Positions 1 through 47,333 of a DNA stretch of 64,000 nucleotides are shown here, piece after piece. Each line of letters starts with the position of its first letter. The first letter of the stretch is position 1. Made by a program: the position numbers and the translations under genes. Source of the DNA: Siderastrea siderea (Eukaryota > Cnidaria > Anthozoa > Scleractinia > Rhizangiidae). The notes under the pieces were generated by a model that worked only from the letters and a program-made list of their open reading frames with translations, was not told the origin of the DNA and ran no database searches. The stretch covers positions 57,701,899 through 57,765,898 of the forward strand of contig OZ034968.1 of the NCBI GenBank assembly GCA_964030785.1, in the 5' to 3' direction.

Positions 1-1017
1 GTGCACGGAACGTGACAACACCTCCTGCATATCTAAAGGATTTTGTATTCATGATGAGCACGATAAAAAGCTCAGTTACAAGAGCAGTAAATGCGGTAAG
101 CTTCTATGCAAAGCAAACAAAATTGCATACATTCATTCCACCTGATGGCATTGAACAGTGAACTGTTGACATCGTTTCCGTTTTGATGTATTTTCACCGG
201 ATAATTTGCCAATACATGTCCGATCAGATAGATAGAGTTATAGACAGCGGAAATTAAACCAGTGTTGACCGACAGAGTGGTTTCCAATGGTCCGTAATCG
301 TAGAACAACAGCTAAAGGTATCATTTGCTTATCCGCAATAACAACAAATGCAATTATCCTTATAGCCAATTTTACGGGAGCGCATATAACAGGTACGACT
401 AAGAAAGACACAATTGGTTGAAATGTGGCATAATTTTTTTAAATTAATTAATCATCCACTTACAAAGCCTAATATAGCACAGTCAAAGTAATCACAAATT
501 CCATATAGCAGGACTAAAATTGTCCATAAATAACAAATTGACAGGAATTGATTTGAACAATTTAATTAACTGAAAGAAGCCAAAAAGTGGTTTTTAAACC
601 ACTTTTTAAAAAACTAGCGGTAACTTATTTTGATATTCTCTTTAGTTAAAAACGAAAGCGTGGTGATTTTGGAAAGTTTATTTTTTTTATAGCCTTGAAT
701 GCTTTTTCAATATCCATTCACGGTTTCTTAATCATCCTACACTACGAAATTCCTTTTTTATTTTAAAATTATCGCTCATTGGCACTTCTCACATTCTCTT
801 TCAGGACAGAAAGCTCAAGGGCCTAAAGCCACTCAACACTGTAGCTGGTCAGCAGTCCTCTTCTACAGCCATGCGTAACACCACAACGACAAGCACTGTC
901 CAACCCCAGTCCCTCAGCACACTGGCATGTCGTTTTTCGGGATGTGTTTTAGAAAATGTGCTCGTTGAAACTTATCAAATGATCGCCATGTCTCGAAAAT
1001 TAAAAAAAAGTTTGTAA
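1..1017 (+). CDS. Secreted helical cytokine-like protein, copy A (3' part only)
   Basis: Partial gene cut by the left window edge. Exon 4 (1-95) ends at a gtaagc donor and exon 5 (805-1017) follows a tttcag acceptor; the intron is phase 0. The encoded segments match exons 4 and 5 of the complete copy B (4598-7016) almost residue for residue: predicted helix C, a Ser/Thr-rich loop and the helix D segment with its ACRFSGC cysteine pair. Near the end, copy B reads GTAG where this copy reads GCC. The 1-nt loss shifts the frame, so the tail becomes a short basic stretch ending at TAA 1015-1017, about ten residues shorter than in copy B. The intron is homologous to that of copy B but longer (709 versus 491 bp). 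Splicing is inferred from paralogue comparison. Whether the shortened product works is unknown. Confidence 0.6.
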
Positions 1018-4000
1018 ATTGATTAATGCCAGCATGGAATTCAAGGATGGACTAACGGTACCAGCCTTCGATTAAGACTTCCCTCACTTGAGTCTTTTTT
1101 AGCTTCTTGATTTGTTAGAGTTTTAATTATTTAAAGTATTTTAAATTGTAGTAGTATTAATTCATAGCAGCTATGATTCTGTTCTTTTTACATTGATATT
1201 CAATTCTCAGTTGAAGTATTTGTAAGAAATGAAATTATAGTTCACGTGAAAGCATTTCTGTTGTCGATGTCTCTTTGTGATAATTTTAGTTCCTCTGCCT
1301 AAGTGCCACGTTTCACAAAAAATTCGATTGTCACAGAAGCATCGAAAAGTGGTGGATCTAGGGGTAGCACCTAAGGGATCTCTACCTCCGACCCTCCCTG
1401 CCAATCTGTACTTGCTCAATCATTTACTTTTTATTTTGAAGTTAAAATCAATAAACAAGCACGGTGGTGACGGCAACAAGAATGCATGCTCAGTAAATCA
1501 AAATGTTCAATGAGCAAAACAGTGGTTCTGCGCTTACGTAATATGTCTGGTTACATTTTATGGCGTTCTTTACAGAACTAGTGGGAACGGAAACTTTCCA
1601 AATTGAAAAGTAGTTATGGAAGAACTGATCAGACCGTCTATAGAATTTAGCTCCTGGATACTGCAATTGGTTCAGCCACGTTGAAAATTTTGCCGAAACA
1701 ATCTAAATATCATTGATGCTTTCCTCTGCGTTACCTGCGTGATTTTTGAAAGGTCGGCCCTATTTACAGATGCTAATACCCCATTGATGATCTACTTCTC
1801 TTAAATCGTTTTTCGTGCTATTTTCGGGACATTCTGAAACCCTTTTTACGCGTAACAAGACAAAATTTGATGTTTTTTCGCGAGCTATTCTGAGTTTCTC
1901 TGCGGAAACAGACGAGCTCCTTTCGCTATGACTCTTCGGTATAGCTAAATTTAAGAAAATGTTTACTGCAAAAATTCCCTTCATTTCAAAATATATTGCT
2001 CTCATTTCAACGCTTCCTGGGTGAAATAAGGTGTTATGTCTTGTTGTCTGATTGCTGCTTATTACTTCAACGAAATAAAATATGGAGTATCAGTTATTAT
2101 GACAACAGTCCTTTAATATGAGCAATCGCCCAGCGGCCGTTCTGAATGGCTACACACCTAATACCAACTAGGCCACCAGATCATATCCAGCTAGTAAGAA
2201 AATTTCCTTTGAAAATGGAAGAATTAACAAGAACTTCATAAATTTGTTCACAATCGTGGGAATTAAGTTCACAAATATTGCATAGAACAATTTTTGTACC
2301 CAATCCCCTCGTATTTGATCGATTGAACTCGTATTGTTTTTGTCGAGTGTTATTTAACGTGCCTCTTCGTTTTGAATTCATGTTCATATACGACCAGTTC
2401 CAAAACGGAAATGATGACTTTTAAATATACCTCTTTACTCTATAATCGTTTGTGTATTTTGTCTGGCATGGTCCCATACGTACGGCAGAGATACGCTCTG
2501 TTTCTGATGGCTCACATATAATCACTCGAATTATTCTACCAGCTGATGAACACCTGAAGGATCGTCTACGTGATCGAACTATTTCTTCATTTTACCCCAC
2601 CTTTGTATTCATGCTCTTTACGCCTTTGGTCCCTTATTGCGACTAAAATTTCTCAAATGATATAGTTTGTCCAAATACCGGTTTGACGGGAAGAAATACA
2701 AAAGAAACTGTTGTACAGTGACATCATAACTAACTGCATGGTGCTCCACAAAGACGCGCAAAACATAAAACTCTGATATCAGTCAGAAAAGGCAGTCCGT
2801 CCCGCCGGCAGCTAGGGGTTCTTAATTTCTATTTGAATCGTTCGCTCTCTTTACTCCGATTCTAAGTAAAGGATAGTGCATCGACCAAAATAAGTATCCA
2901 CTCTGGTATGATTTCTGCCGAATAACCACGCAGAGGACGCTTCACAAATCCCTCTATCAAACGGGAATACTGCACTGGTCGAAACCATAACAGACGAAGT
3001 TCGAACTCTCCTTCACGTTTGACCACCACATCGAGCCCTTGTCAATCCTCTTCGCTTCACCGAGTTTGCATCTGCTTAAGTGTACATGGGAACGATGAGA
3101 TTTTGAACTCTCGCCAATTCGAAAGAGATAAATTCGCGGCAATTCCCACATAAGTTCACCGAGTTCAAACGAAAACTTAATATAGTTCCCTGCTATTACT
3201 GACTTCGATTGACCCATGCAGATAGACGGTTTGCATGCAAAATAATAACGGGTACTATCTTTTTACTCTCTCTCAGAGAGGCCAGCATCGATTATAATTA
3301 CATAATTTGTTATTTCGTATAGAATAACTCCCCTCTCCCGCGCTGTGTTAAACTTATAATAATGAGGTTCCAACATGATATGGTGTTATCCGTTTGAATC
3401 GCCTTGTTAATGTAAAGGGCTAAATCTATTTTTAATACTGCCTGTTAATTTAATTATTATAAAGTCATCGTCAAGGCTAAGCCAAGGAAGCAAATTCAAG
3501 CGTGAATCAAAGTGAGGTATACGATTGCTACTAAATGTTCGGCCGACTTTTGTGATGATTAAGTTTAGTACTTTTCACATAGAAACCAAAAACATGGGGT
3601 GTTTTCACTCTCGACATCTGTCTAATAAGAACCCAATTTGCAGGTTTGAATGTGTATTCACTAAATAAGGATGTGTCTTGAGGCACGTATTCTTCTTGGA
3701 AACACAAGGAAAGAAGAAGTTTAAGAACTCCTGACTGAAGAAAACCATCGTTTACTTACCTTCAAAGTTAGCACACATGGTCGAATTTAGCTCATGACAG
3801 TAGAAAACATTGAACAGGAAAAATGTCCCTTTCCACGTCGCTAGCATTTCGTTAGCATTATGTTGTACAGCCTTCCCGATTAAAATACAGTTTTGTCCCA
3901 TATCTGCGCCTCAAAAACTGTAACTACCAGCACATACAGAACAGTGATTGTCACTTCGATTACAAGTGAAAGAAGTGGAAATATAAGAAAGAATTATCAT

Positions 4001-4376
4001 ATCTATTGTTGAAAAGATTGTAATCAGAGGAACCCCACCCGAGTCTTAACAACGGATGTAGATCGACGTACCTGGATGAAACAGTTGGAAGTATAATAAT
4101 TAAATTCCTGTTCACTATCTTTAAAAATTTATAAACAATTAAGGAAAGCAATCCAATTTGTCATAATAGGAAGAATTGTTATAACGTTGTTGAGAAATGG
4201 AGCTAAACAATAAAAGAATTTTAGGACAATTTTGTAAACGTGCAGAACTTTGAGGCATTTTTTGGCTTTTAGGTTTTATTGATTTAAAAAGGTATACTAA
4301 AAAATGTCGGACTGAGCAGAAAATATCGAAATTGGGAAGTTGAACTTTAGGGGTAAATCTTGCCACCTGTCCTTGA
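1018..4376. other. Intergenic between copies A and B; duplicated flanks
   Basis: No supportable gene. The first 400 bp (3' flank of copy A) are homologous to 7017-7400 downstream of copy B. From about 2930, and clearly from 3540, the sequence is homologous to about 8000-9480 upstream of copy C. The flanks were therefore duplicated with the gene, in units of roughly 5-6 kb. Short open frames here are not shared between copies. Confidence 0.6.
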
Positions 4377-4505
4377 TGAGTCACAAGAAATTTGAACTCG
4401 ATCGGACGGTCCGTTTTCTACAGCCTACAACTTTTGCTCTGGGGAGAAAATTCTTAAATTAGTCCACAAGATGACAAAGCAGGAACTTCTTAAGAAATAT
4501 ATAAG
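4377..4505 (+). promoter_or_regulatory. Putative promoter of copy B (AP-1 site and TATA box)
   Basis: TATATAAG at 4498-4505 lies about 92 bp before the start codon. A perfect AP-1 consensus TGAGTCA is at 4377-4383. Both motifs and the A-rich leader between TATA and ATG are kept in the same order upstream of copy C (9383-9389 and 9482-9489). The conserved TATA and AP-1 sites suggest a regulated, inducible promoter, which is an inference. Confidence 0.5.
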
Positions 4506-4597
4506 GATGGAATCTTGGACAATTCACCATTCAAACTTAAAATCACAAAGTGTACTACACAAGAATTTCCAAGAAGAACAAGGAGGACTTAACTATA

Positions 4598-7016
4598 ATG
4601 GCAGGTAAGTGAATTCAAGTACAGTAAGGCATTCAGTGTGTCCTAATTAATGCTCTAACTCAAGAATAGTCTTCAGTCAGTACTAATCGGCATCTCCCAG
4701 CTTGAAGTTGATGTGTTATGTATTTCTTTCTTTTTGGCCTTTTTTTTGGGCTGCCTTGTTTTATTTTGTCTAAGGCTCACTGTCAGTCCCATGTGTTTGT
4801 TTACTTTACTGTTGTCTCTGTCTCTGATTTTCTGATATCGTCGTTTGCCATTTATTTTTATCACCAGTGTGTTTTTTGATTATTAGTTTTGTTTTAATGT
4901 TAGTTTCTATTATGGAGTAATTGATTTAGTAACAGAGTTCAGTTTGATTGCTATAGCGCGTAGCTTTCTGGAATTTGAACGTACTTTGTCCGAAAAAAAA
5001 ATATGCAAAGATACGTTCCAAGCTTTGAAAACTGTTTTCTACCAAAAAAAAAGATTTCGTGTTCATTTGCCTTACAAACTCTTCTAACAATTTAACTAGG
5101 AGTTTTTATTTTCAGTTTGCCAGCTAAACAATTTTGCCCTTAATTTTTATATTCGAGCTATTCAATATGAATTTCTCACTTCAAAGGACCCAACAAAACT
5201 CAAGATGGCGGATATGATATTTCATGACGTCACAAGTACTGAATACTAACTTCTCCTTTTTCTTTGTTTTTTTTTCTTAGATTTTCGAGTAACATTCCGC
5301 AGTATTTATTGTTTGGTACTGCTGTGCCTTTTGAATGTGTTTGACAATTTGCCTGTGCACGCCGGCTGTCACCGGACTCGATGCTCGGGAACATCCGGTC
5401 TCTACCGCGATTTCCGAAAAAGTATTGATGTTCTTTATGTATCTTCAAGACTCCTAGCTCGCCTAACATACAGGGCCCTAAACCACACAGTAAGTCGCAT
5501 TCTATAAATGATGTACAACGAATTGTTTCTGAATTGCACATTGTACATCGACAGAATGAAGTTTGCGTTCTTCTCTGTTATGCTACCGTTTCAATCTTTT
5601 TTCTTGCAGAAATTTGATTACAACATTATGGATTCCTGCAACCCTAGCTGCAGTTCTTTTGCTGATGAGGTGATGCAAGAAATGAATTTAACGAGATCCA
5701 GTTGGACTAATGCGTCGGTAAGACTAAGCCCTATTACTGCTGCTGTTAAGCGATGATGTAATGTCGTCAATTGTGTAAGCTTTGTTCCACTGTGGATGTC
5801 TGTGCAGATTACATATGAGAAACACTGAGATACGACATGACACTTACATACAGAGAGTTTTCAAAACTTCTTGCTCTTTTCCCATAAACGTGTATGTAAC
5901 TTAATTTTCGCCTCCTCGATGCCTTTTTTTTTCAAAAGAAATACCCAATTTAATTGGCACAAATAAAGTTTCGGTTTTTCCACTTTTCATAGCTGTTGAT
6001 GTTAATTGTTTTAATTGATGTTAGAGATCCTTTCACGGTTTCATTTTAGACGTGGCGAATTACTTAGATATAATGAACCAACACATTTCCTACCCTGTTT
6101 TTCAGATGAGCTCTGTTCTAGATTTCCACAGAAGAGTTTCCATCGGTTTCAGTCAACAGCTTACAGCATCACTAGCACAGCTATCACGTGCACGGAACGT
6201 GACAACACCTCCTCGATATCTAAGGGATTTTGTATTCATGATGGGCACGATAAAAAGCTCAGTTACAAGAGCAGTAAATGCGGTAAGTTACTATACCAAC
6301 ATGATTGCACACATTCATTCCAACTGATGGCATTGAACAGTTGACATCGTTTACGTTTTGATATATTTTCACCGGATAATTTGCCAATACATGTCGGATC
6401 AGATGGATAGAATTATAGACAGTTGGGACTTTGAGGGAACTCATAAACATTAATTATTTATCCACTTACTGAGCCTAACATAGCACGGTCAAAGTAATCG
6501 CGAATTCCATATAGCAGGACTAAATTTGATATGTCTATAAATAACAAATTGAAGGGAATTGATTTTAACAATATAATTAACTGAAAGAAGCCAAAAAGTA
6601 GTTTAAAACTAGCGGTAGCGCATTTTGATATATAGCGTGGTAATTTTTCAAAGTTCTTTTTATAGCTTTGAATACTTTTTCAGTATCACGGTTTTTTAGC
6701 TTTCCTACACTATGAAATACTTTTTCAATTTTAAAATTATTGCTCATTGGCACCTTCTCAAATTCTTTTTCAGGACAGAAAGCTCAAGGGCCTAAGGCCA
6801 CTTAACACTGCAGCTGGTCAGCAGTCTTCTTCTACAGCCATCCGTAACACCACGACGACAAGTACTGTCCAACCCCAGTCCCTCAGCACATTGGCATGTC
6901 GTTTTTCGGGATGTGTTTTAGAAAATTTGCTCGTTGAAACTTATCAAATGATCGTAGATGTCTTGAAAATTAAAAATAGTTTGTTAATGCCAGCATGGAA
7001 TTCAAGGATGGACTAA
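4598..7016 (+). CDS. Secreted four-helix, class I cytokine-like protein, copy B (complete)
   Basis: Five exons: 4598-4604, 5281-5489, 5610-5717, 6106-6282 and 6774-7016, all GT-AG, joining to 247 codons. Intron phases are 1, 0, 0, 0. Exon 1 holds only ATG-GCA-G, in good start context (A at -3, G at +4). Residues 1-30 form a signal peptide with a hydrophobic core (about 10-23), cleavage likely after HA30. The mature chain has Cys32, 37, 82, 86, 209 and 214 and five N-glycosylation sequons (N70, N98, N106, N139, N192). Four long amphipathic helices are predicted by eye: A 42-70, B 109-137, C 143-172, D 202-237, with long A-B and C-D loops, the latter Ser/Thr-rich. Layout, tiny first exon and phase pattern match what I know of vertebrate IL-6, EPO and GH genes. 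No sequence family was recognised, so the cytokine role is inference; a lineage-specific helical secreted protein is the alternative. Flanked by diverged tandem copies A and C. Confidence 0.75.
5201..5232 (+). promoter_or_regulatory. CRE plus YY1-like block in intron 1 of copy B
   Basis: CAAGATGGCGG (YY1-like) is followed by a perfect cAMP-response palindrome TGACGTCA at 5225-5232, about 48 bp before exon 2. The block is nearly identical in intron 1 of copy C (10456-10486), although much of the surrounding intron differs. It could be an intronic enhancer or alternative promoter. Motif identity is seen; function is inferred. Confidence 0.4.
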
Positions 7017-9382
7017 CGATACTAGCCTTCGATTAAGACTTACCTCCTTACTTGAGTCTTTTTTAGCTTTTTGATTTGTTAGATTTTTTATTATTAGAAG
7101 TATTTTAATTTGTAATGGTATTCGTAGCAGCTATGATTCTGTACTTTTTACATTGATATTCAATTCTCAGTTGAAGTATTTGTAAGAATTAAAATTATAG
7201 TTCACGTGAAAGCATCTCTGTTGTCTATCTCTCTTTGTGATTATTTCAGTTCCTCTGCTAAAGTGCAACGTTTCACACCAAATTCGATTGCCACAGAAGC
7301 GTCAAAAAGTGGAGGATCTAGGCGTAGTACCCAAGAAATCTCTATCCTCAGCCCTCCCTGCCAACCTGTACTTGCAATTGTGCTTTCAAAAATCACTTGA
7401 ATTTAAACTAATCTAGATGAAAAAGAAAAGTGAAGGAAAAATAACAGAGTGCACGAGGGCAATAGACAAAGTTAAAAGGAAATTAAATTTAATCGATTGC
7501 TTTAAATTCGAAAATTGCTTGTTATCATTCTTTGGCTTTGGAGTATCAAGAACGACTTGCAGGTTACCATTAGGACCCCCCCCCCCCTTCCCCCATCCAG
7601 AATTCCTGGATCCGTCCCTGCAAGTACTGCCCCAGTCAAGGGTAAAATTCTTGACTTAAGTCTTATTTCATAGCAATATGGATTCCTTGTTTTCAAATTT
7701 GATAAACGTAACATTCCGTTTATTTCCTGAAATCATAAGTTAGAAACTAATCATAAGTTGAAAGGAAAGAAAAACTTGCTCGAACTTTTTCTTCTGACTG
7801 ACAATACTTTCTCGAAATATGTTACTCTTGTGTGTCTGTATTGTTTATAATTTCACCGAAATCGGTGAAGATACGAGTTTACTTTGGAAATATTTTTCAT
7901 CCATCAGGAACTGATGATATGCAATATACATTTTGAGCTTATTGATCTTTCTACATTTTGTATAAAGTGATTGTTTACTTTACCCATACGAAACAGAAAA
8001 TGGACAGAGAATGCTTCACAAGTACCTAGTTCAAACTAGAACACAGAATCTCGGGAATCGACGGCAGACGGGATACAATATCTCCCCACCCTCGTTTGCC
8101 CGCTGACGGAATTTGTGTCAGTCTTGTCGTCTGTCAATCGCTCTCGGCCATTGTTATTGCTCTCACTGTGTTTTGAAAAATCTGCTGATTTCCTTGAAAA
8201 TCGATAAGATTACACCTTTAGCTAATTCCAGCCAGAGTATTTTCCTAACATCCTTCAAACAGTATAAGTTAGCAATACTTGTTCTCAGCTTGCTAATCAA
8301 ATGGGCGATATCTGCTAATTACGCTTACCCGAGGAAATTTTTATGTGGCGTTCCGTGTTTGCCCTTCGAATATCTAGGGCAAAGCTTATTGATATACAGC
8401 TGTGTATTAACATATAGCGGTACTGCCCGTTAATTAAATGGAATTTTCCGTACGTCAAGATTGTGCCAGAAAGTGCAATACAACCGTGAGAGTTAAATAC
8501 ACGAGTGTTAGCTGAACGGTTGACCAATGTCAAATGACGTTTCAGTGTCTTCGGGTGAGCTTAATTTAGTAAATTTGTCATCTAGAAACCCAAAACATGG
8601 GGAGTGTTTTTTTCTCCATTTCAGTCCAATAAAAAGCGCTTTTGCAGGGTAAATGTCTAAAAGTTGGCCTGGGTCTTGAATCACGTACTGGCGTACACAA
8701 GAAAGGGAATTGGAATGTTAAATATTACAAAATTCCTGACTAGTAAAGCCATTGCACGTTTACCTACCTTTAAAGCTAGCCCGCGTGGGCAAATGTAGCT
8801 CATGACAGCGGAGAACATTAAACAGGAAGATCAGAATGATTGCTCCTTTTCGAAAGCCGTTTGCATTCTGCAGTTTCTGCTGTACATAGATCCCGAGAAA
8901 AGCCGACTTCTGTTCAGTGTGTAAACCTCAAAATCCACTAATGCTATTGCATGTCCATAATGTTTGTAGTCGCTACACAGGGACGAAACAGAGAGAATTA
9001 TCATATGTATTGTCGAAATGATTATAATCAGTGGAACCCTACCCGAGTCTAAACAACGGAAGTAGATCGACGTACCTTGATGAAACAGCATGAAATATTA
9101 TTCCCGATTCCCTTCTAAGCTTTTTGAAAATTTATAAACAATTTAGGAAAGCGATCGGATTTGTCATAATAAGAGGAATTCAATGTAACATTGTTGAGAA
9201 ATTGGGTCAAACTATAAAATAGTTCTAAAATAACTTTATGGAGGTGTGGAGCTTTTAATTGTTTTCCTTTTAAAATTTTCTGACTGACAAAACCTTAAGT
9301 ATAATATCTTGAGGCTTTGCAGAAAGAATTGAATTTGGGAAGCTAAAGTTTAGGGCCAAATTCCAGTTGCCACCTGTCCTAA
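7017..9382. other. Intergenic between copies B and C
   Basis: Holds the 3' flank of copy B (7017-7400, homologous to 1018-1420), a C-tract near 7580, and the upstream flank of copy C (about 8000-9380, homologous to the region upstream of copy B). No gene is supported. Confidence 0.55.
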
Positions 9383-9489
9383 TGAGTCAGAAAAAAATTG
9401 ATCGGTTTTCGACAGCCTATAACTTTTAGTGTCGGGAAGAAAAATACAAGATGACAACTCAGCTGGAACTATTATCAGCGGTATATAAG
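9383..9489 (+). promoter_or_regulatory. Putative promoter of copy C (AP-1 site and TATA box)
   Basis: TGAGTCA at 9383-9389 and TATATAAG at 9482-9489 are in the same arrangement as upstream of copy B. The following leader is nearly identical to that of copy B up to the start-codon position. Confidence 0.45.
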
Positions 9490-10455
9490 ATTGGAATCTT
9501 GGACAATTTACCATTCAAACTTAAAATCACAAAGTTTACTACACAAGAATTTTCAAGAAGAAAACAGAGGACTTATTTATAACGGCAGCAGGTGTGTGTG
9601 TGTGAAGTACGCTAGGTTATTTTGTGTATTGTCCTAATTGCTCTATTTTACGAAAAGCCATTATTCAATACCAACAAGTATCTATCAGCTTCAATTTGAT
9701 GAGCCATTTGTTTATTTTTCTTTGGCATTTGACTTTGTTGGCCTTACTGTACTGTACTATCTTGTCTCACTGCTAGTGTTCTCTCAGCAGCGTGAGAGCC
9801 GTTTGCTAACTTCACTCGTATCTCTTTGGTCTACTACTGAGTTTGCTATAGTTGTCAGCATTTTAAGTCGCGGCGTGTTATTTTGAGTCTTTTTCGTTTC
9901 ATTCGGTTTTTACAACATTCAAAGAACTAAATTTCGTTTGGTATGGTGCTAAACTCAAGGCGGATTAGAAATTACCTAAACAGTGAAGTGGAATTCTAAT
10001 ATAGCGTATGTAATTTTAGTTACAGTTCAGCTTGATTTCTCTAACATTTTGTTTTATCCAACGTAATCTACTTTTTGTGCAATACATTTACAAAGTGCGT
10101 TAAAGACGGGCCATTTCATTTTTGAGGGGGATGTGGGCAATGTTTTTTGTTTTTGCCTGAATTTTTTTCCTGGATAAAAGCTGTATACAAGTATAGAATT
10201 GCCCTAATTTGCAAGGTATCATCAGTGTGCTTGGTTTCACTGTACACGATTTTTTTCCTTCTGCAAAAATTTTGCCGAGGGAAGGCAGGTGCACCTGGAC
10301 TTTCTCAGAATATATTGTTCGTTTTGCTTTCTGAAAGCCGTTTTTTTTTCATACAAAGAATTTTGAGAAACTTTTCCGGAAGTGTATTGCTTGAACTTTG
10401 CAAATTAAAACAATGTTTTATTTAGTACGATTTGAGTACGATAGAGACAAAATTC

Positions 10456-10486
10456 GAGATGGCGGATCTGATATTTCATGACGTCA
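10456..10486 (+). promoter_or_regulatory. CRE plus YY1-like block in intron 1 of copy C
   Basis: GAGATGGCGG followed by TGACGTCA at 10479-10486. It is the counterpart of 5201-5232 in copy B. Confidence 0.4.
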
Positions 10487-10659
10487 CAATTAAAGGCACT
10501 GAGTAACCGCTGTGCTGGTTTTAACCATTACAGTTTAATTGCTGTAAATATTTCAGGTAGTTGGTAGTTGCCAGTAGTAGGGACCTCGTTGGTCCCAAGG
10601 TGGTTGAAATGTTATCCTGGGGATAAAAAGCGAATCGAATTCACAGAGGGTCTTTGTTA

Positions 10660-10870
10660 AGCCCCTCTGACAATCTCAACACCAACCAAGCCAAACAAAT
10701 TCAACATTTCCATTCAAAACCATTCAGATTTGTTGAAATCGGCATGTTAAACGCATTTGGGTACCCTAAATGAATAGCTGGTGTTGAACAAAGTTCGATT
10801 TCCTTCAAACAGTCGTACAACAGGGTTGTATTAAACAATGTTGAATACAATGTCGAGGCCTTTAAGTGTA
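10660..10870. repeat. Interspersed repeat in intron 1 of copy C
   Basis: A segment rich in TCAACA / TGTTGAA words, including GGTGTTGAACAAAG. A related stretch with GGTGTTGAGCAAAG occurs at about 36380-36500. It is absent from intron 1 of copy B, so it is probably an interspersed repeat inserted after the copies separated. Confidence 0.35.
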
Positions 10871-11680
10871 ACTGCCGTCTTAGATTTTATCACCGTAAAG
10901 AACCAGGGAACAAGTTTAATTTACTCTATGATATCAACCCAGCTCTTTAGCCCTGAATACTAATTTCGAATTCTTTATTTTCTCTTTTCAGATTCTCCAG
11001 ACACATTCCACACTATTTATTGTTTGGTAGTGCTATCATGTCTTTTGGCTTTGTTTTACAATTCTCCTGGGCACGCCGGCTGTCTTCGGACTCGATATTA
11101 TGAAAGGTTCGGGCTCCTTCTGGAGTTGCTAAAAAATATTAAACTCCTGTTTTCATCTTCACGCAACATAGTTCGCTTAATACCTAGAGCCCTAACCCAC
11201 CCAGTAAGTTATGTTTTTATAAATATTTGATGTAACTTCTTGTTTTTTGTGAATCAGTAAATTGAGAAAATGGCTTTTGCGTTCTTACCGGCTTGATTAT
11301 GAGCTTATTTACTCGGTTGTATGAAATAACGTGTACCAGTGAAATATAAGGGTGCTTTAATTGCCTAATTCCGATCTTTCTTGCAGAAATATGACTGCAG
11401 CATTACGGAGTCCTGCAGCCCTTGTTGTAGTTCTGTTGCTGATGAGGTAACGCAAGAAATGAACCTATCAAGAACCAGTCGGTCTAACGCAATGATACGA
11501 TATTGTGGCGACTGTGGGCATAAACAAATAGATTATTTTCCCCAGTCCATCAGCACATTGGCATGTGATTTGTCAGGATGTGTTTTAAAAGATTTGCGCG
11601 CAGAGTCTTATGAAATGATTGAATCAAAAATGGTTGGTAAATTAAATACAAGAATGGAATTTAAGGTAGAGATAGACTGA

Positions 11681-18940: not shown

Positions 18941-20367
18941 CATTTTTTATCATTCAAACCGGTTAATAACTGGCTTGTGAAATGAAAGCAATCAGAAAGC
19001 GTAAATACCCAGAGAGAGGTTCTCATCCATGCAACTCATGTTTTCAGAGATTAAATAAAGAGCAACCCATGAAAAGAGAAAGATGGATGGGAAATGAACC
19101 ATTTTATGGGATGGTGTAATTCAGCCATTGCATAATTAGAAATTAAACATCACGTGGGACACAAATTTATATTTTTACCTTCTTTTCTGTTTTTTGTTAA
19201 GGGCCACATTTTGTCCAGCATATGGAAGAATAAGCCTGTTAACAAATTTGTTCCCATCTGAGTGTCACTACTGGCACTTACAGGCACAGCAACAGCAGCT
19301 ACAAAAAGTGGCATTGTAACTGCCTTAGGACTGTCCACCCCAGTAACAGTTGAGTGTAGTCCAAACAGGACTTACACCTCCCATGTGCGTCCTGATAGGG
19401 GCGATGACAAATTGGATAGAATTTTGCAGCCAATTGTTGCAGAACTCAAATCAAAGAGGCTGGAAATGCCCCTCACTCTTATTTATGGAAATCTAGAAAC
19501 AATTTCAGGCTGTTTCCTGTATTTTCCAATGAAATGGGCAAAGACCAATACCACCCTTCAGCAGAGCCTTCAGCAAAGAACAGACTTTTTACCATGTATC
19601 ATGCCCAATATTCCAAGCATGAGAGAAGAAAAATAGTAGATGAACTAGTAAATGGGAAATCAAGCCACCGTGTGTTGTTTGTGACTGTGGCATTTGCAAT
19701 TGGGATTGACTGCAATGACATTCACAGAATTGTTCACACTGGGGTAAGATACACGAGGTTGGGAGGGCTGGCAGAAATGGCCTTGCAGCTAGGGCTGACA
19801 CTTATTATTATTATGACATTCCAAACGCCTTTAAGAAACATACCAGAAGCCATGCAGTCCTATGTCCAGTCCAAGGAATGTAAAAGAAAAATTATTTTAA
19901 ATCATTTTGACCACAAGGTTCCAGACAATCAACCTCAAGATCACACATGCTGTGACTTTCACAGGCTACACTGTCAGTGTGAAAACTGTATGCTTGTGCA
20001 TACAGCTGAACAGGTTGAGGCACTCAGTGTTCAAGATGAGTCTGAGATGACCCTCACTGAACAGAATGAGGGTAACTCCCAATTATTTACTTCTGAGGCC
20101 AAACTTAAAATCAAACAAGACATGGAGAAATATAGATTTCAACTCCAAAAAGATATTGGGAGAAGCACTGTGCGCAATGTGGCCCTGTCCAGTGCGTTTC
20201 CGATTGAAATGATTTCTTTGGTCCTTGAACACTTGCCAGACCTTATCTCTGTACAAACGAAGGAATCCATCTTACAAGTGTACAGTAAAGATATGGCTGC
20301 AGATTTTTTCAGTATTATTCAGAAACACCTTCCCAAGAAGACGTGCAGTAGAATCTCCATAATGTGA
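17967..20367 (+). pseudogene. RecQ-like ATP-dependent DNA helicase, degraded
   Basis: Remnant of a RecQ-family helicase. Exon 1 runs from ATG 17967 to about 18447 with several frameshifts. It keeps the Walker A motif (ALPTGFGKSL, about 18093), the stretch VVIVVSPLSAFMRDQVQKLE, and motif II DEAH (18422-18433) in a different frame. After an intron of about 750 bp, the second part (from about 19202) keeps motif III as ALTGTATAATKS, then shifts frame near 19530. It continues through the helicase C domain (HRVLFVTVAFAIGIDC), shifts again so that motif VI reads EVGRAGRNG in another frame, and ends with a cysteine/histidine-rich zinc-binding-like stretch (HTCCDFHRLHCQCENC) and a C-terminal tail. At least four frame changes make it non-functional. 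A second RecQ-like fragment lies at 22625. Confidence 0.75.
18750..18940 (+). repeat. Retroelement-like tail with (TGTC)n microsatellite
   Basis: A segment ending GCATAAATAAAG runs into an uninterrupted TGTC tetranucleotide array (about 18892-18939). This is typical of the 3' end of a LINE- or SINE-type retroelement. It lies in the intron of the RecQ remnant. Confidence 0.5.
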
Positions 20368-44504: not shown

Positions 44505-47333
44505 ATGTCGCGTTTTATGTTTGCGTTTTGGATTCTCGTGACCACGTCGAACAAAGGCCAGTCGACGAAAACAAATCATTCTGAACACTGCGCTAATCCG
44601 GGGCGGATTTCAAACCTGCAAGGCGACTTGATTCTCGGCGGGTTTTTCCCCGTCCACATTATTAAACCCACCGAAGGCACAAAGCAAGCGCATGACATCA
44701 ACCTTTATGGAATCAACTGGGTGGAAGCCATGTTGTTTACCATTCAAGAAATCAACCGCAACCATCATTTATTACCGTCTAATTTCACTTTGGGCTATGA
44801 CATTAGAGATTCCTGCAATAATGTCCCCGTGGCTTTGAAAGCTGCGTTGGATTTTGTACTCGATGCGGGCAATTCAAGCAGCGGAAATAACATGTACAAT
44901 AATTGTTCTACTCGGTATTGTAAATGCAAGAAAAAAGAGACTTTGATATCGGCCGTCATTGGAGCGGCTTCGTCACCGATATCAATAAGCGTCGCGAATC
45001 TTATAGGTGTAGACGACACCCCTCAGATCAGCTACTCGTCCACAAGCGTACTGCTTAGCGATAAGACCGTCTTTCCCTCGTTTTTTAGGACAATTCCGTC
45101 CGATACATACCAAGCGCAAGCCTTGGCCGATTTGTTGAAACATTTCGGTTGGACTTATGTGAGCATAGTTGCCTCTGATAATGCTTATGGCCGAGCTGGC
45201 GTTGATTCTCTGCGAACCGAACTTAAAAAGCGGGAAATTTGTATTGCCTTGGAGAAGATTTTCAATCCCTTGCTGTCGCAAGAGGAGCTTCAACGAATAA
45301 TCGAGTCACTGAAGAATGAACCAAAAGCCAGGGTGATCATCTTATGGTGTGAAAGGCCCAACGCGGTTGGATTCTTAAACGAAGCTTCGCGTCAGAGGCT
45401 TAGTGGCAAAACATGGATAGGAACAGAGACTTGGGGAGACGCGTACCAGCTTACAACGCTGGACGAAAACGTCGTGGGAGGAATGCTTGGAGTGTTGCCG
45501 CTGTTAAAGAAACATGCGGGATATGAGGAGTATCTTGGACGCTTACAGCCAAACAATACTGATTACAACCCGTGGATGTGGGAATATTGGACAAGCAGGT
45601 TCGGTTGCTTTACGCAGGACGCAGCGGAGAATCTTACGGCATCCAGTCGCAAGGCTCAAGAGGAAGAATATTACGTTTACACAACCAAGCAACCGAATGT
45701 GACCATACTGTGCTCAAAAAGCTTCTCCAAGCCAAGCACAGATTTGCTGCCTCGGAACAAGTACACAAATGTCATGGATGCGGTCTACGCCGTGGTTCAT
45801 GCGGTGAGTAACATCTTGAACTGCAAGGATGAAGAAAGCTTTCTCCAAGGAGGGAAATGCCCAAATGTTGTTGACTATTTAATACAACCAAGCGACATTG
45901 TGCGATTCTTGAAGAATGTGTCATTCGCGGGAAGGTCTGGGTCTCAGATCATGTTTGACAAGAATGGCGATCTCCTCTACGGATCTTACGCCATAAAAAA
46001 CCTACAACAATACAACGAGAAAGAGATGAAGTTTGAGGAGATCGGCATATGGAACGGCATCGATGGAAACCTTTCACTGTATAACAACTCTGAGATCATA
46101 TGGAACGGATGGACTTCAGAAAAACCCAAGTCAGTTTGCGCGGAGCCGTGTGGACCGGGATATTACCGTGTCCAGGGTAGTATCACATGCTGCTGGAAAT
46201 GTGTCTTGTGTGAGAAAGACTTTGCAAAATCAACCTATGGGCATGACGCTTGCACTAAATGCCAAGAGGGGTTTGTATCAAACGCGCAACGAACCAGCTG
46301 CGTGAAATTAAAATCTGACTATTTAGCGTGGAGTAACGGAGAGGGTATAAGCGCCACTGTGCTCAGTGTCATAGGCTTGTTCATATCCATCAGCGTTTTG
46401 GCCGTCTTCTACAAATACCGCGATACAGCCGTCGTAAAAGCATCCAATCGCGAGCTCTCGTTTGTACATCTCGGATGTATCGTGGCAATATTCGTGCTTC
46501 CGTTCGTGATGATCGGAAAACCGACAGTAGCTGGCTGTACCGTGCTGCCGTTATTCTTCGGAATCCCGTTCACTCTCTGCACCGCTATCATGTTGTTAAA
46601 GACGGATCGACTCTTGCGCATATTTAAAGCAAGATCGCGGCTGACCGCGGGCGGCAGTTATCTCATCAGCAACAAAATGCAGGCCATCGTTGCGGCTGTT
46701 ATGACGTTGGTCCCTGTTACCCTTACAACAATCTGGTTCATAGTCCATCCACCGGAGGTGATCGCCGAAGTTGACCTCTCACGAGAAGGCTGGCAGGTTC
46801 TCAGTTGTGGAGCATCAAACGAACTCTTAAACATTGTAATTCTAGGATACGTGTTGGTTCTAGCACTACTATGTACATATTTTGCTTTCAAAGCTAGAAA
46901 GCTCCCTGAAAACTTCAACGAAGCCAAGTTCATCTGCTTTGCTATGTTTGCGTTCTGTGTTTTCTGGCTCAGTTTCTTCCCGGCGTTCTATGACAGCACT
47001 GGTTCCACGCGTAACTTCGTGTTTTGCGTAGCCGTGCTCGGCTCGGGGTACGCCGTGCTGTGTATAATGTACGCTCCTAAGTTACGCGTTATTCTCTTTC
47101 ACCCTGAAAGTAACACTACGGAGGCTTTCAGAGCAACAACTATGGTCGCTATGAAGAAGGCTGGGGTAGTGGTATCCTCCAACAGTGCCACACCCCCTCG
47201 AATAACCCCTGTGCCCTCCCCTGTACCCTCGAGGCGGAATTCTCCTGACAGCGTCACGGTGGATGAAGGGAGAACGTCCGCCGTGAGTATTGGTCGAAGG
47301 ATTTTGCCATCACCTCAGCTAGGTCAACGATAA
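44505..47333 (+). CDS. Intronless metabotropic-glutamate-like class C GPCR
   Basis: A single 942-codon open frame. Residues 1-20 are a probable signal peptide. Residues 38-520 form the ligand-binding Venus-flytrap domain; 544-600 are the cysteine-rich linker (CCWKC, CEKD, CTKC); 613-857 hold seven membrane segments with the class C signature PENFNEAKFICFAMF at 801-815. Residues 858-942 are a Ser/Pro-rich cytoplasmic tail. Against mGluR1 as I recall it, the alpha-amino-acid contacts are kept (S157, T180, D200, Y228) and K419 matches the lysine that binds the ligand side chain. The arginine that binds the glutamate gamma-carboxylate is W72, and the aspartate contacting the amino group is E308. 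It should therefore bind an amino-acid-like ligand, perhaps not glutamate, and signal through G proteins at the plasma membrane. Lack of introns contrasts with the neighbouring gene and suggests retrocopy origin of the lineage. Confidence 0.92.
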   Translation: MSRFMFAFWILVTTSNKGQSTKTNHSEHCANPGRISNLQGDLILGGFFPVHIIKPTEGTKQAHDINLYGINWVEAMLFTIQEINRNHHLLPSNFTLGYDIRDSCNNVPVALKAALDFVLDAGNSSSGNNMYNNCSTRYCKCKKKETLISAVIGAASSPISISVANLIGVDDTPQISYSSTSVLLSDKTVFPSFFRTIPSDTYQAQALADLLKHFGWTYVSIVASDNAYGRAGVDSLRTELKKREICIALEKIFNPLLSQEELQRIIESLKNEPKARVIILWCERPNAVGFLNEASRQRLSGKTWIGTETWGDAYQLTTLDENVVGGMLGVLPLLKKHAGYEEYLGRLQPNNTDYNPWMWEYWTSRFGCFTQDAAENLTASSRKAQEEEYYVYTTKQPNVTILCSKSFSKPSTDLLPRNKYTNVMDAVYAVVHAVSNILNCKDEESFLQGGKCPNVVDYLIQPSDIVRFLKNVSFAGRSGSQIMFDKNGDLLYGSYAIKNLQQYNEKEMKFEEIGIWNGIDGNLSLYNNSEIIWNGWTSEKPKSVCAEPCGPGYYRVQGSITCCWKCVLCEKDFAKSTYGHDACTKCQEGFVSNAQRTSCVKLKSDYLAWSNGEGISATVLSVIGLFISISVLAVFYKYRDTAVVKASNRELSFVHLGCIVAIFVLPFVMIGKPTVAGCTVLPLFFGIPFTLCTAIMLLKTDRLLRIFKARSRLTAGGSYLISNKMQAIVAAVMTLVPVTLTTIWFIVHPPEVIAEVDLSREGWQVLSCGASNELLNIVILGYVLVLALLCTYFAFKARKLPENFNEAKFICFAMFAFCVFWLSFFPAFYDSTGSTRNFVFCVAVLGSGYAVLCIMYAPKLRVILFHPESNTTEAFRATTMVAMKKAGVVVSSNSATPPRITPVPSPVPSRRNSPDSVTVDEGRTSAVSIGRRILPSPQLGQR

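What the first reader, a model, noticed from the sequence alone, without database searches (positions are those of the whole stretch)
4598..7016. Undescribed secreted four-helix protein with class I cytokine gene architecture in a cnidarian-like genome
Seen: five exons joining in frame, a 30-residue signal peptide, six mature cysteines, five N-glycosylation sequons, and four long amphipathic segments separated by two long loops. Exon 1 codes two residues plus one base (phase 1) and all other introns are phase 0. Exons map as signal plus helix A, A-B loop, helices B plus C, C-D loop plus helix D. Known: vertebrate IL-6, EPO and GH genes share a tiny first coding exon, a phase 1 first intron, phase 0 others, and the same exon-to-helix map. 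Inference: a pre-vertebrate long-chain helical cytokine family, in tandem copies with an AP-1/TATA promoter, perhaps immune-inducible.
Basis: partly seen in the sequence, partly recalled or inferred. Interest (0 to 1): 0.88.

Follow-up and report, generated by a model that had tools for sequence, protein, structure and literature searches.

The report
Orphan secreted protein, cytokine-like gene layout
A gene in what looks like an animal genome encodes a small, probably secreted and sugar-coated helical protein whose exon layout resembles that of vertebrate hormones such as erythropoietin and interleukin-6, but nothing in its sequence yet proves that it is their relative.

Summary
The gene is real as a sequence feature. 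Five exons (4598-4604, 5281-5489, 5610-5717, 6106-6282, 6774-7016) join with GT-AG ends in phases 1,0,0,0 into 247 residues with a signal-like start, six mature cysteines and five sequons. A diverged downstream copy aligns in blocks that stop near the predicted splice sites, and a partial upstream copy keeps part of exon 4 and exon 5. The downstream copy has lost its ATG and exon 4, so one of the three copies seen is degenerate.

Exon 4 alone models as two helices around a seven-residue break (pLDDT 76.5; their packing was not measured). A copy-1 chain models as helix, 31 residues of coil, helix, at low confidence (53).

No Pfam, PDB or protein-database relative was found beyond fragments of this family. 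Alignment to five verified human cytokines shows no exon-coherent homology.

Best reading: a secreted helical ligand with class I long-chain cytokine gene architecture. Cytokine-like function is plausible (0.47). Membership is not shown. Cnidarian origin was not tested.

The parts
4598..4604 (+). exon 1: ATGGCAG, two residues plus one base; donor GTAAGT, phase 1
5281..5489 (+). exon 2: signal-like start and proposed helix A; ends with the Thr of sequon N70
   Evidence: homologous block in copy 3; P0006, a database fragment with this exon
5610..5717 (+). exon 3: proposed A-B crossover with C82-x3-C86 and sequons N98, N106
   Evidence: dN/dS about 0.29 against copy 3
6106..6282 (+). exon 4: proposed helices B and C, short break with sequon N139
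   Evidence: AlphaFold2 of this exon: helices 2-29 and 37-58, pLDDT 76.5, pTM 0.38
6774..7016 (+). exon 5: proposed polar C-D crossover (N192), helix D with C209 and C214, stop
   Evidence: copy-1 counterpart modelled at low confidence
4377..4383 (+). AP-1-like TGAGTCA; also at 9383 before copy 3; count in the window is at chance level
4498..4505 (+). TATATAAG core-promoter candidate; the only other one in the window is at 9482 before copy 3 (2.24 expected by chance)
5193..5238 (+). intron 1 element with AGATGGCGG and ATGACGTCA, 91% identical to 10447-10492
7188..7193 (+). ATTAAA, possible poly(A) signal
3..95 (+). copy 1, part of exon 4 (window begins inside it), donor GTAAGC
805..1017 (+). 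copy 1, exon 5, with an earlier stop than the focal copy
9582..9591 (+). copy 3, exon 1 remnant: ATG reads ACG, 3-base insertion keeps phase, donor GTGTGT
10992..11203 (+). copy 3, exon 2, open
11387..11680 (+). copy 3, exon 3 fused in frame to the tail of exon 5; exon 4 absent
   Evidence: ORF P0005 in the protein database differs by one residue over its 73

Best explanation
The gene encodes a precursor that enters the secretory pathway, is N-glycosylated and released, and folds as a bundle of four long helices with two long crossovers (A-B and C-D) and one short B-C connection. It most likely acts as an extracellular signalling ligand: two faces of the bundle bring receptor chains together, as long-chain class I cytokines do. 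A candidate receptor type is the class I receptor-like CRLF3, reported from cnidarians to mammals and still without a known ligand. Shown here: the gene model on sequence and paralogue evidence, and two predicted helices in exon 4. Inferred: secretion, glycosylation, the full bundle, its topology, ligand function, receptor.
For: Gene model and phases 1,0,0,0. BLAST blocks with copy 3 cover exon 2, exon 3 and the end of exon 5, besides the upstream stretch and a short intron 1 element, while most intron sequence gives no block. Exon 3 synonymous excess, Fisher p 0.014. Two helices in exon 4. Helix-coil-helix for the copy-1 C-D stretch, low confidence. Amphipathic A and C. Mature exon sizes close to EPO, IL-6 and GH, with two parallels to EPO noticed after the fact: the sequon ending helix A puts its Thr in the last codon of exon 2 in both (N70, N24), and exon 3 carries C-x3-C in both (cytokine exon ends recalled). 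[quoted passage not shown]
Against: No profile or sequence match to any cytokine family (the only PDB hit, E 1.9, is a peptidoglycan-associated lipoprotein). Exon-anchored alignment scores are not significant. The one high shuffle z-score (EPO, 3.2 to 5.3 by setting) comes from an alignment that does not put the exon ends together. Helix D is not amphipathic against shuffles. No ATTTA element in the 3' UTR, a common cytokine mRNA feature by recall (copy 1 has one). Focal/copy 1 dN/dS of about 0.51 is not distinguishable from neutral. A survey traces IL6R only to Mollusca (PMC13203501, passages), and PMC6797617 (passage) places JAK and the cytokine receptor in Bilateria, so a dedicated receptor pathway in cnidarians is not established. 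Deep conservation is not shown.
Confidence: 0.47

Rival explanations
1. A fast-evolving, lineage-restricted secreted helical glycoprotein of another use (defence, reproduction, mucus or nematocyst content) whose five-exon 1-0-0-0 layout resembles class I cytokines by chance.
For: No relatives found outside fragments of this same family. Exon 2 evolves fast between copies (dN/dS about 0.88 from the values). A phase 1 intron near a signal peptide is common in secreted proteins (recalled). No exon-coherent alignment to any of the three cytokines with this layout.
Against: The joint match of tiny first exon, phases, exon 3 and 4 lengths, loop pattern, exon-end sequon and C-x3-C is more than one shared trait, though it was assembled after the fact and no chance rate was measured.
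Confidence: 0.36
2. A decaying tandem family: the focal copy is no longer, or was never, expressed as modelled.
For: Copy 3 lost its start and exon 4. The C-terminal end differs between focal copy, copy 1 and P0003. dN/dS focal/copy 1 not significant. No transcript evidence was available.
Against: All focal splice sites, start and frame are intact. The core promoter and leader are more alike between copies than the upstream average (86% against 72%; 50 of 2000 column shuffles reach this), although upstream stretches at 4001-4080 and 4121-4200 are about as alike.
Confidence: 0.1
3. A class II (interferon or IL-10 type) helical cytokine.
For: Fish type I interferon ORFs are also split by four introns (PMC4929537, passage read).
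Against: Those four introns are all phase 0 (same passage); here the first intron is phase 1. No Pfam match.
Confidence: 0.04

Closest known systems
Erythropoietin (EPO_TPO family)
   Same: Phases 1,0,0,0; exon 4 of 60 codons against 59 here; sequon whose Thr closes exon 2; C-x3-C in exon 3; sequon in the middle of exon 4 (position 28 of 60 against 31 of 59) (EPO exon lengths recalled).
   Different: No Pfam match; exon-anchored alignment p 0.26; EPO's C7-C161 pairing (recalled) has no counterpart at the C-terminal end; here two cysteines lie near the start of helix D; longer exon 5 (80 residues against 51).
Interleukin-6
   Same: Phases 1,0,0,0; mature exon sizes 41/38/49/55; close cysteine pair at the start of exon 3 (C-x5-C) (exon lengths recalled).
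   Different: Exon-anchored alignment p 0.10; different cysteine spacing; a 2026 survey of 18 metazoan phyla or subphyla reports IL6 only in vertebrates (PMC13203501, passages read).
Growth hormone / prolactin
   Same: GH: phases 1,0,0,0; mature exon sizes 31/40/55/65; one cysteine in exon 3 and three in exon 5 (exon lengths recalled).
   Different: Alignment p 0.41; no sequons in GH. Prolactin was not compared.
Unpaired (Upd) ligands of insect Domeless
   Same: Secreted invertebrate ligand modelled as a four-helix bundle (Upd2: PMC5385356, passages read).
   Different: Upd was not compared directly; no search listed it.

Membership tests
Class I long-chain helical cytokines | Tiny first coding exon, phase 1 then three phase 0 introns (EPO, IL-6, GH; recalled; not shared by LIF or CNTF, recalled) | tested here: met
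   compared
Class I long-chain helical cytokines | Secreted, cleavable signal peptide | tested here: inconclusive
   Hydrophobic stretch and VHA|GC at 28-30 read by eye; no predictor was run
Class I long-chain helical cytokines | Four long helices with long A-B, short B-C, long C-D connections | tested here: inconclusive
   B and C supported; C and D at low confidence; A by amphipathicity only
Class I long-chain helical cytokines | Up-up-down-down topology of the whole chain | not testable with these tools
Class I long-chain helical cytokines | Significant match to a curated cytokine family or a solved cytokine | tested here: not met
   Pfam; PDB sequences; five human cytokines
Class I long-chain helical cytokines | Binding to a class I receptor and JAK/STAT output | not testable with these tools
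   No binding data; no receptor search of the genome was possible (genome search did not complete)
EPO_TPO (Pfam PF00758, accession recalled) | Profile match | tested here: not met
   Not among the families listed at E up to 10, (the tool notes that its filters drop most matches above about 0.1)
Type I interferon (class II helical) | Four phase 0 introns in fish genes (PMC4929537) | tested here: not met
   First intron is phase 1

The most novel reading that the evidence does not exclude
This is a pre-vertebrate, possibly cnidarian, long-chain class I cytokine that shares descent with EPO, IL-6 and GH, with gene architecture conserved after the sequence has diverged beyond recognition, and it is a natural ligand of an early class I receptor such as CRLF3.
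Probability: 0.25. Interest if true: 0.92.

Novelty: new variant of a known kind. Interest (0 to 1): 0.6.

Why it matters
A published survey finds IL-6 itself only in vertebrates (PMC13203501), and the ligand of CRLF3, a receptor reported from cnidarians to mammals, is unknown (PMC6797617; passages of both read). A secreted helical protein with the class I exon layout in such a genome would give a concrete candidate for a missing ligand and would let the origin of the cytokine family be tested directly. If the likeness is chance, it is a caution against reading ancestry from exon phases alone.

Tried and rejected
Tried without result. The own-genome search (for further copies, receptors and JAK) did not complete in 13 of 13 attempts. 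The genome-contig scan gave 31 pattern stretches, none a relative; the viral-contig scan 20, none. The first script used a wrong exon 5 anchor that hit copy 1 and printed a meaningless long translation, and the second placed the exon 5 acceptor one base late; corrected.

Rejected. (1) Homology to EPO from the Smith-Waterman score (z 5.31, 0 of 500 full shuffles and 4 of 500 within-segment shuffles; six settings gave 2 to 33 of 3000 shuffles; EPO was the best of five cytokines tried). The alignment pairs the end of exon 4 (residue 167) with EPO residue 95 rather than 115 and the end of exon 2 with residue 19-20 rather than 26, and runs EPO helix C into the C-D stretch; the exon-anchored test gives p 0.26. 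Known relatives behave little better: EPO-GH p 0.20, IL-6-GH p 0.98, EPO-IL-6 p 0.017, so this test has little power either way. (2) Fold match from exon 4: Foldseek found 51 matches, all at E of 2.5 or more, none a cytokine by description among the 50 listed; a pair of helices is too plain to be diagnostic. (3) YidD and RPA14 Pfam hits (E 0.13, 0.31): far below cut-off. (4) AP-1 as evidence of immune induction: TGAGTCA is at chance frequency.

Paper searches: 10 of 10 used. 'Nematostella' with 'helical cytokine' gave one paper (an oyster study) and 'coral' with 'helical cytokine' five, none on a coral cytokine by title. I saw no report of a cnidarian class I cytokine among the titles and abstract openings shown (at most 20 per search; several searches held more papers than were shown). 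PMC6797617 does state, in a passage, that the four-helix bundle typical of class I cytokines was present in ancestors of cnidarians. Five papers were opened by term search for passages only.

Full report
Observation. Each intron begins GTAAG and ends AG; phases after exons 1 to 4 are 1, 0, 0, 0; the chain has 247 residues, eight cysteines (six after residue 30) and five sequons. Between 4500 and 5280 the pair ATG 4598 and donor 4605 is the only one found that reads into exon 2. There is no transcript evidence: of the seven database proteins found, six (P0001-P0004, P0006, P0007) are single exons whose frame runs on into intron sequence, and P0005 is the fused exon of a copy-3 type gene.

Paralogue evidence. 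A downstream copy (about 9482-11680) aligns with the focal gene in blocks 5239-5495, 5600-5713 and 6873-7177, close to exon 2, exon 3 and the end of exon 5; the other blocks are the upstream stretch 4000-4742, a short intron 1 element and part of the 3' flank. Global alignment gives 71% and 78% for exons 2 and 3 and 49% and 35% for introns 2 and 1 when counted over the longer sequence; counted over the shorter one the introns reach 74% and 72%, so this measure shows unequal lengths more than unequal conservation, and the exon contrast rests on the BLAST blocks. The copy's start codon reads ACG, and exon 4 with about half of exon 5 is gone, although the rest stays open for 168 residues. An upstream copy, cut by the window edge, keeps part of exon 4 and exon 5; the stretches holding them, introns included, are 88% and 84% identical to the focal gene. 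Profile searches of 1639 open stretches of the window found no further copy; the few other matches had E of 0.0024 or more, the best being intron-read rows of the profile itself. Selection: exon 3 against copy 3 has dN 0.19 and dS 0.68 (Fisher p 0.014 on rounded counts); exons 2+3 p 0.09; focal against copy 1, 5 synonymous and 8 non-synonymous changes, p 0.32. The copy-1 count covers 31 codons of exon 4 and the first 59 of exon 5; the divergent last codons were left out, which favours constraint. Constraint is therefore shown for exon 3 only.

Relatives. Pfam, PDB sequences (one chance hit at E 1.9) and the three allowed protein searches gave no named relative: 2 of 417, 4 of 561 and 3 of 18 candidates, seven distinct proteins, all fragments of this family. 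Identities to the query are 45 to 100%; P0004 and P0007 list the same longest contig length, 1,185,795 bases. They show that the family exists in other records, but not how far it reaches. The genome contigs and viral scans were negative; both collections are poor places to look for an animal gene.

Fold. The whole chain could not be modelled. Exon 4 alone gives helices 2-29 and 37-58 with a seven-residue break holding sequon N139 (pLDDT 76.5, pTM 0.38, four sequences). The output does not say how the two helices pack, so a hairpin is inferred. A copy-1 chain gives a helix over the C segment, 31 residues of coil, and a helix over the D segment (pLDDT 53.2, pTM 0.26), too weak to trust beyond secondary structure. 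Amphipathicity supports A and C, B less, D not. Together these fit helix A, long crossover, B, short loop, C, long crossover, D. An up-up-down-down bundle needs that loop pattern; the data do not prove the bundle.

Comparison with known cytokines. Only EPO stood out (local z 5.31, 0 of 500 shuffles; z 3.81, 4 of 500 when shuffling within segments; LIF reached 35 of 500, CNTF 96, IL-6 297, GH 434); the related pair CNTF-LIF has z 3.45. On inspection the alignment does not match the exon ends, and aligning exon to exon removes the signal (EPO p 0.26, IL-6 0.10, GH 0.41). I therefore claim no sequence homology. The architecture does agree: phases 1,0,0,0 and mature exon lengths 42/36/59/80 beside 26/29/60/51, 41/38/49/55 and 31/40/55/65 (cytokine exon lengths recalled; LIF and CNTF, with fewer exons by recall, were left out of this comparison). 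Two small parallels with EPO were noticed after the fact: the sequon at the end of helix A closes exon 2 with its Thr in both, and exon 3 has C-x3-C in both. If intron phases 0, 1, 2 occur at about 0.45, 0.30, 0.25 (recalled), phases 1,0,0,0 alone have a chance near 0.03, so phase agreement by itself is weak; the exon sizes add to it, by how much was not measured.

Regulation. TATATAAG occurs at 4498 and 9482 and nowhere else in 64 kb, a number that chance would give (2.24 expected). The stretch 4490-4604 is 86% identical between copies against 72% for 4001-4489 on average (50 of 2000 column shuffles reach this), but stretches at 4001-4080 and 4121-4200 are at 82 to 93%. An intron 1 element (5193-5238) with AGATGGCGG and ATGACGTCA is 91% conserved in copy 3. 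TGAGTCA is present before both copies but not enriched, and the focal 3' UTR has no ATTTA, copy 1 one. Immune induction is not supported by any of this.

Literature (passages read by term search, not whole papers). CRLF3, a class I receptor-like protein, is reported in all major eumetazoan groups from cnidarians on, though sparsely in invertebrates, with unknown ligand; the same paper says that the four-helix bundle, SHP, STAT and SOCS were present in ancestors of cnidarians and that JAK and the cytokine receptor may have been added in Bilateria (PMC6797617). [quoted passage not shown] the two disagree on JAK. Only two class I receptors were found in a sea squirt (PMC1963337, from the abstract opening; passages). 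Fish type I interferon ORFs have four phase 0 introns (PMC4929537). Insect Upd2 has been modelled as a four-helix bundle (PMC5385356).

Verdict. The gene model is well founded for a sequence-only case. The cytokine reading is a reasonable working hypothesis from architecture and local helix prediction, not a demonstrated membership.

Noticed in passing
44505-47333 +: Single-exon 942-residue class C receptor: ANF_receptor and 7tm_3 above Pfam cut-off, NCD3G just below it.
   Followed up: partly
19420-20367 +: C-terminal part of a RecQ-like helicase with a RecQ zinc-binding match, both just under their Pfam cut-offs.
   Followed up: no
5193-5238 and 10447-10492: Intronic element with AGATGGCGG and ATGACGTCA, 91% identical between copies; each motif occurs only at these two places in the window (0.21 and 0.31 expected). 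In copy 3 about 460 bases separate it from the exon 2 block.
   Followed up: partly
11387-11680 +: Copy 3 reading frame fuses exon 3 to the tail of exon 5 and stays open; P0005, a database cluster of five member sequences, differs from it by one residue over 73, so this odd form is probably not private to this window.
   Followed up: partly
6984-7016 and 1015-1017: The C-terminal ends differ: the focal copy reads ten residues further than copy 1 and P0003, and the residues just before also differ between focal copy and copy 1.
   Followed up: no
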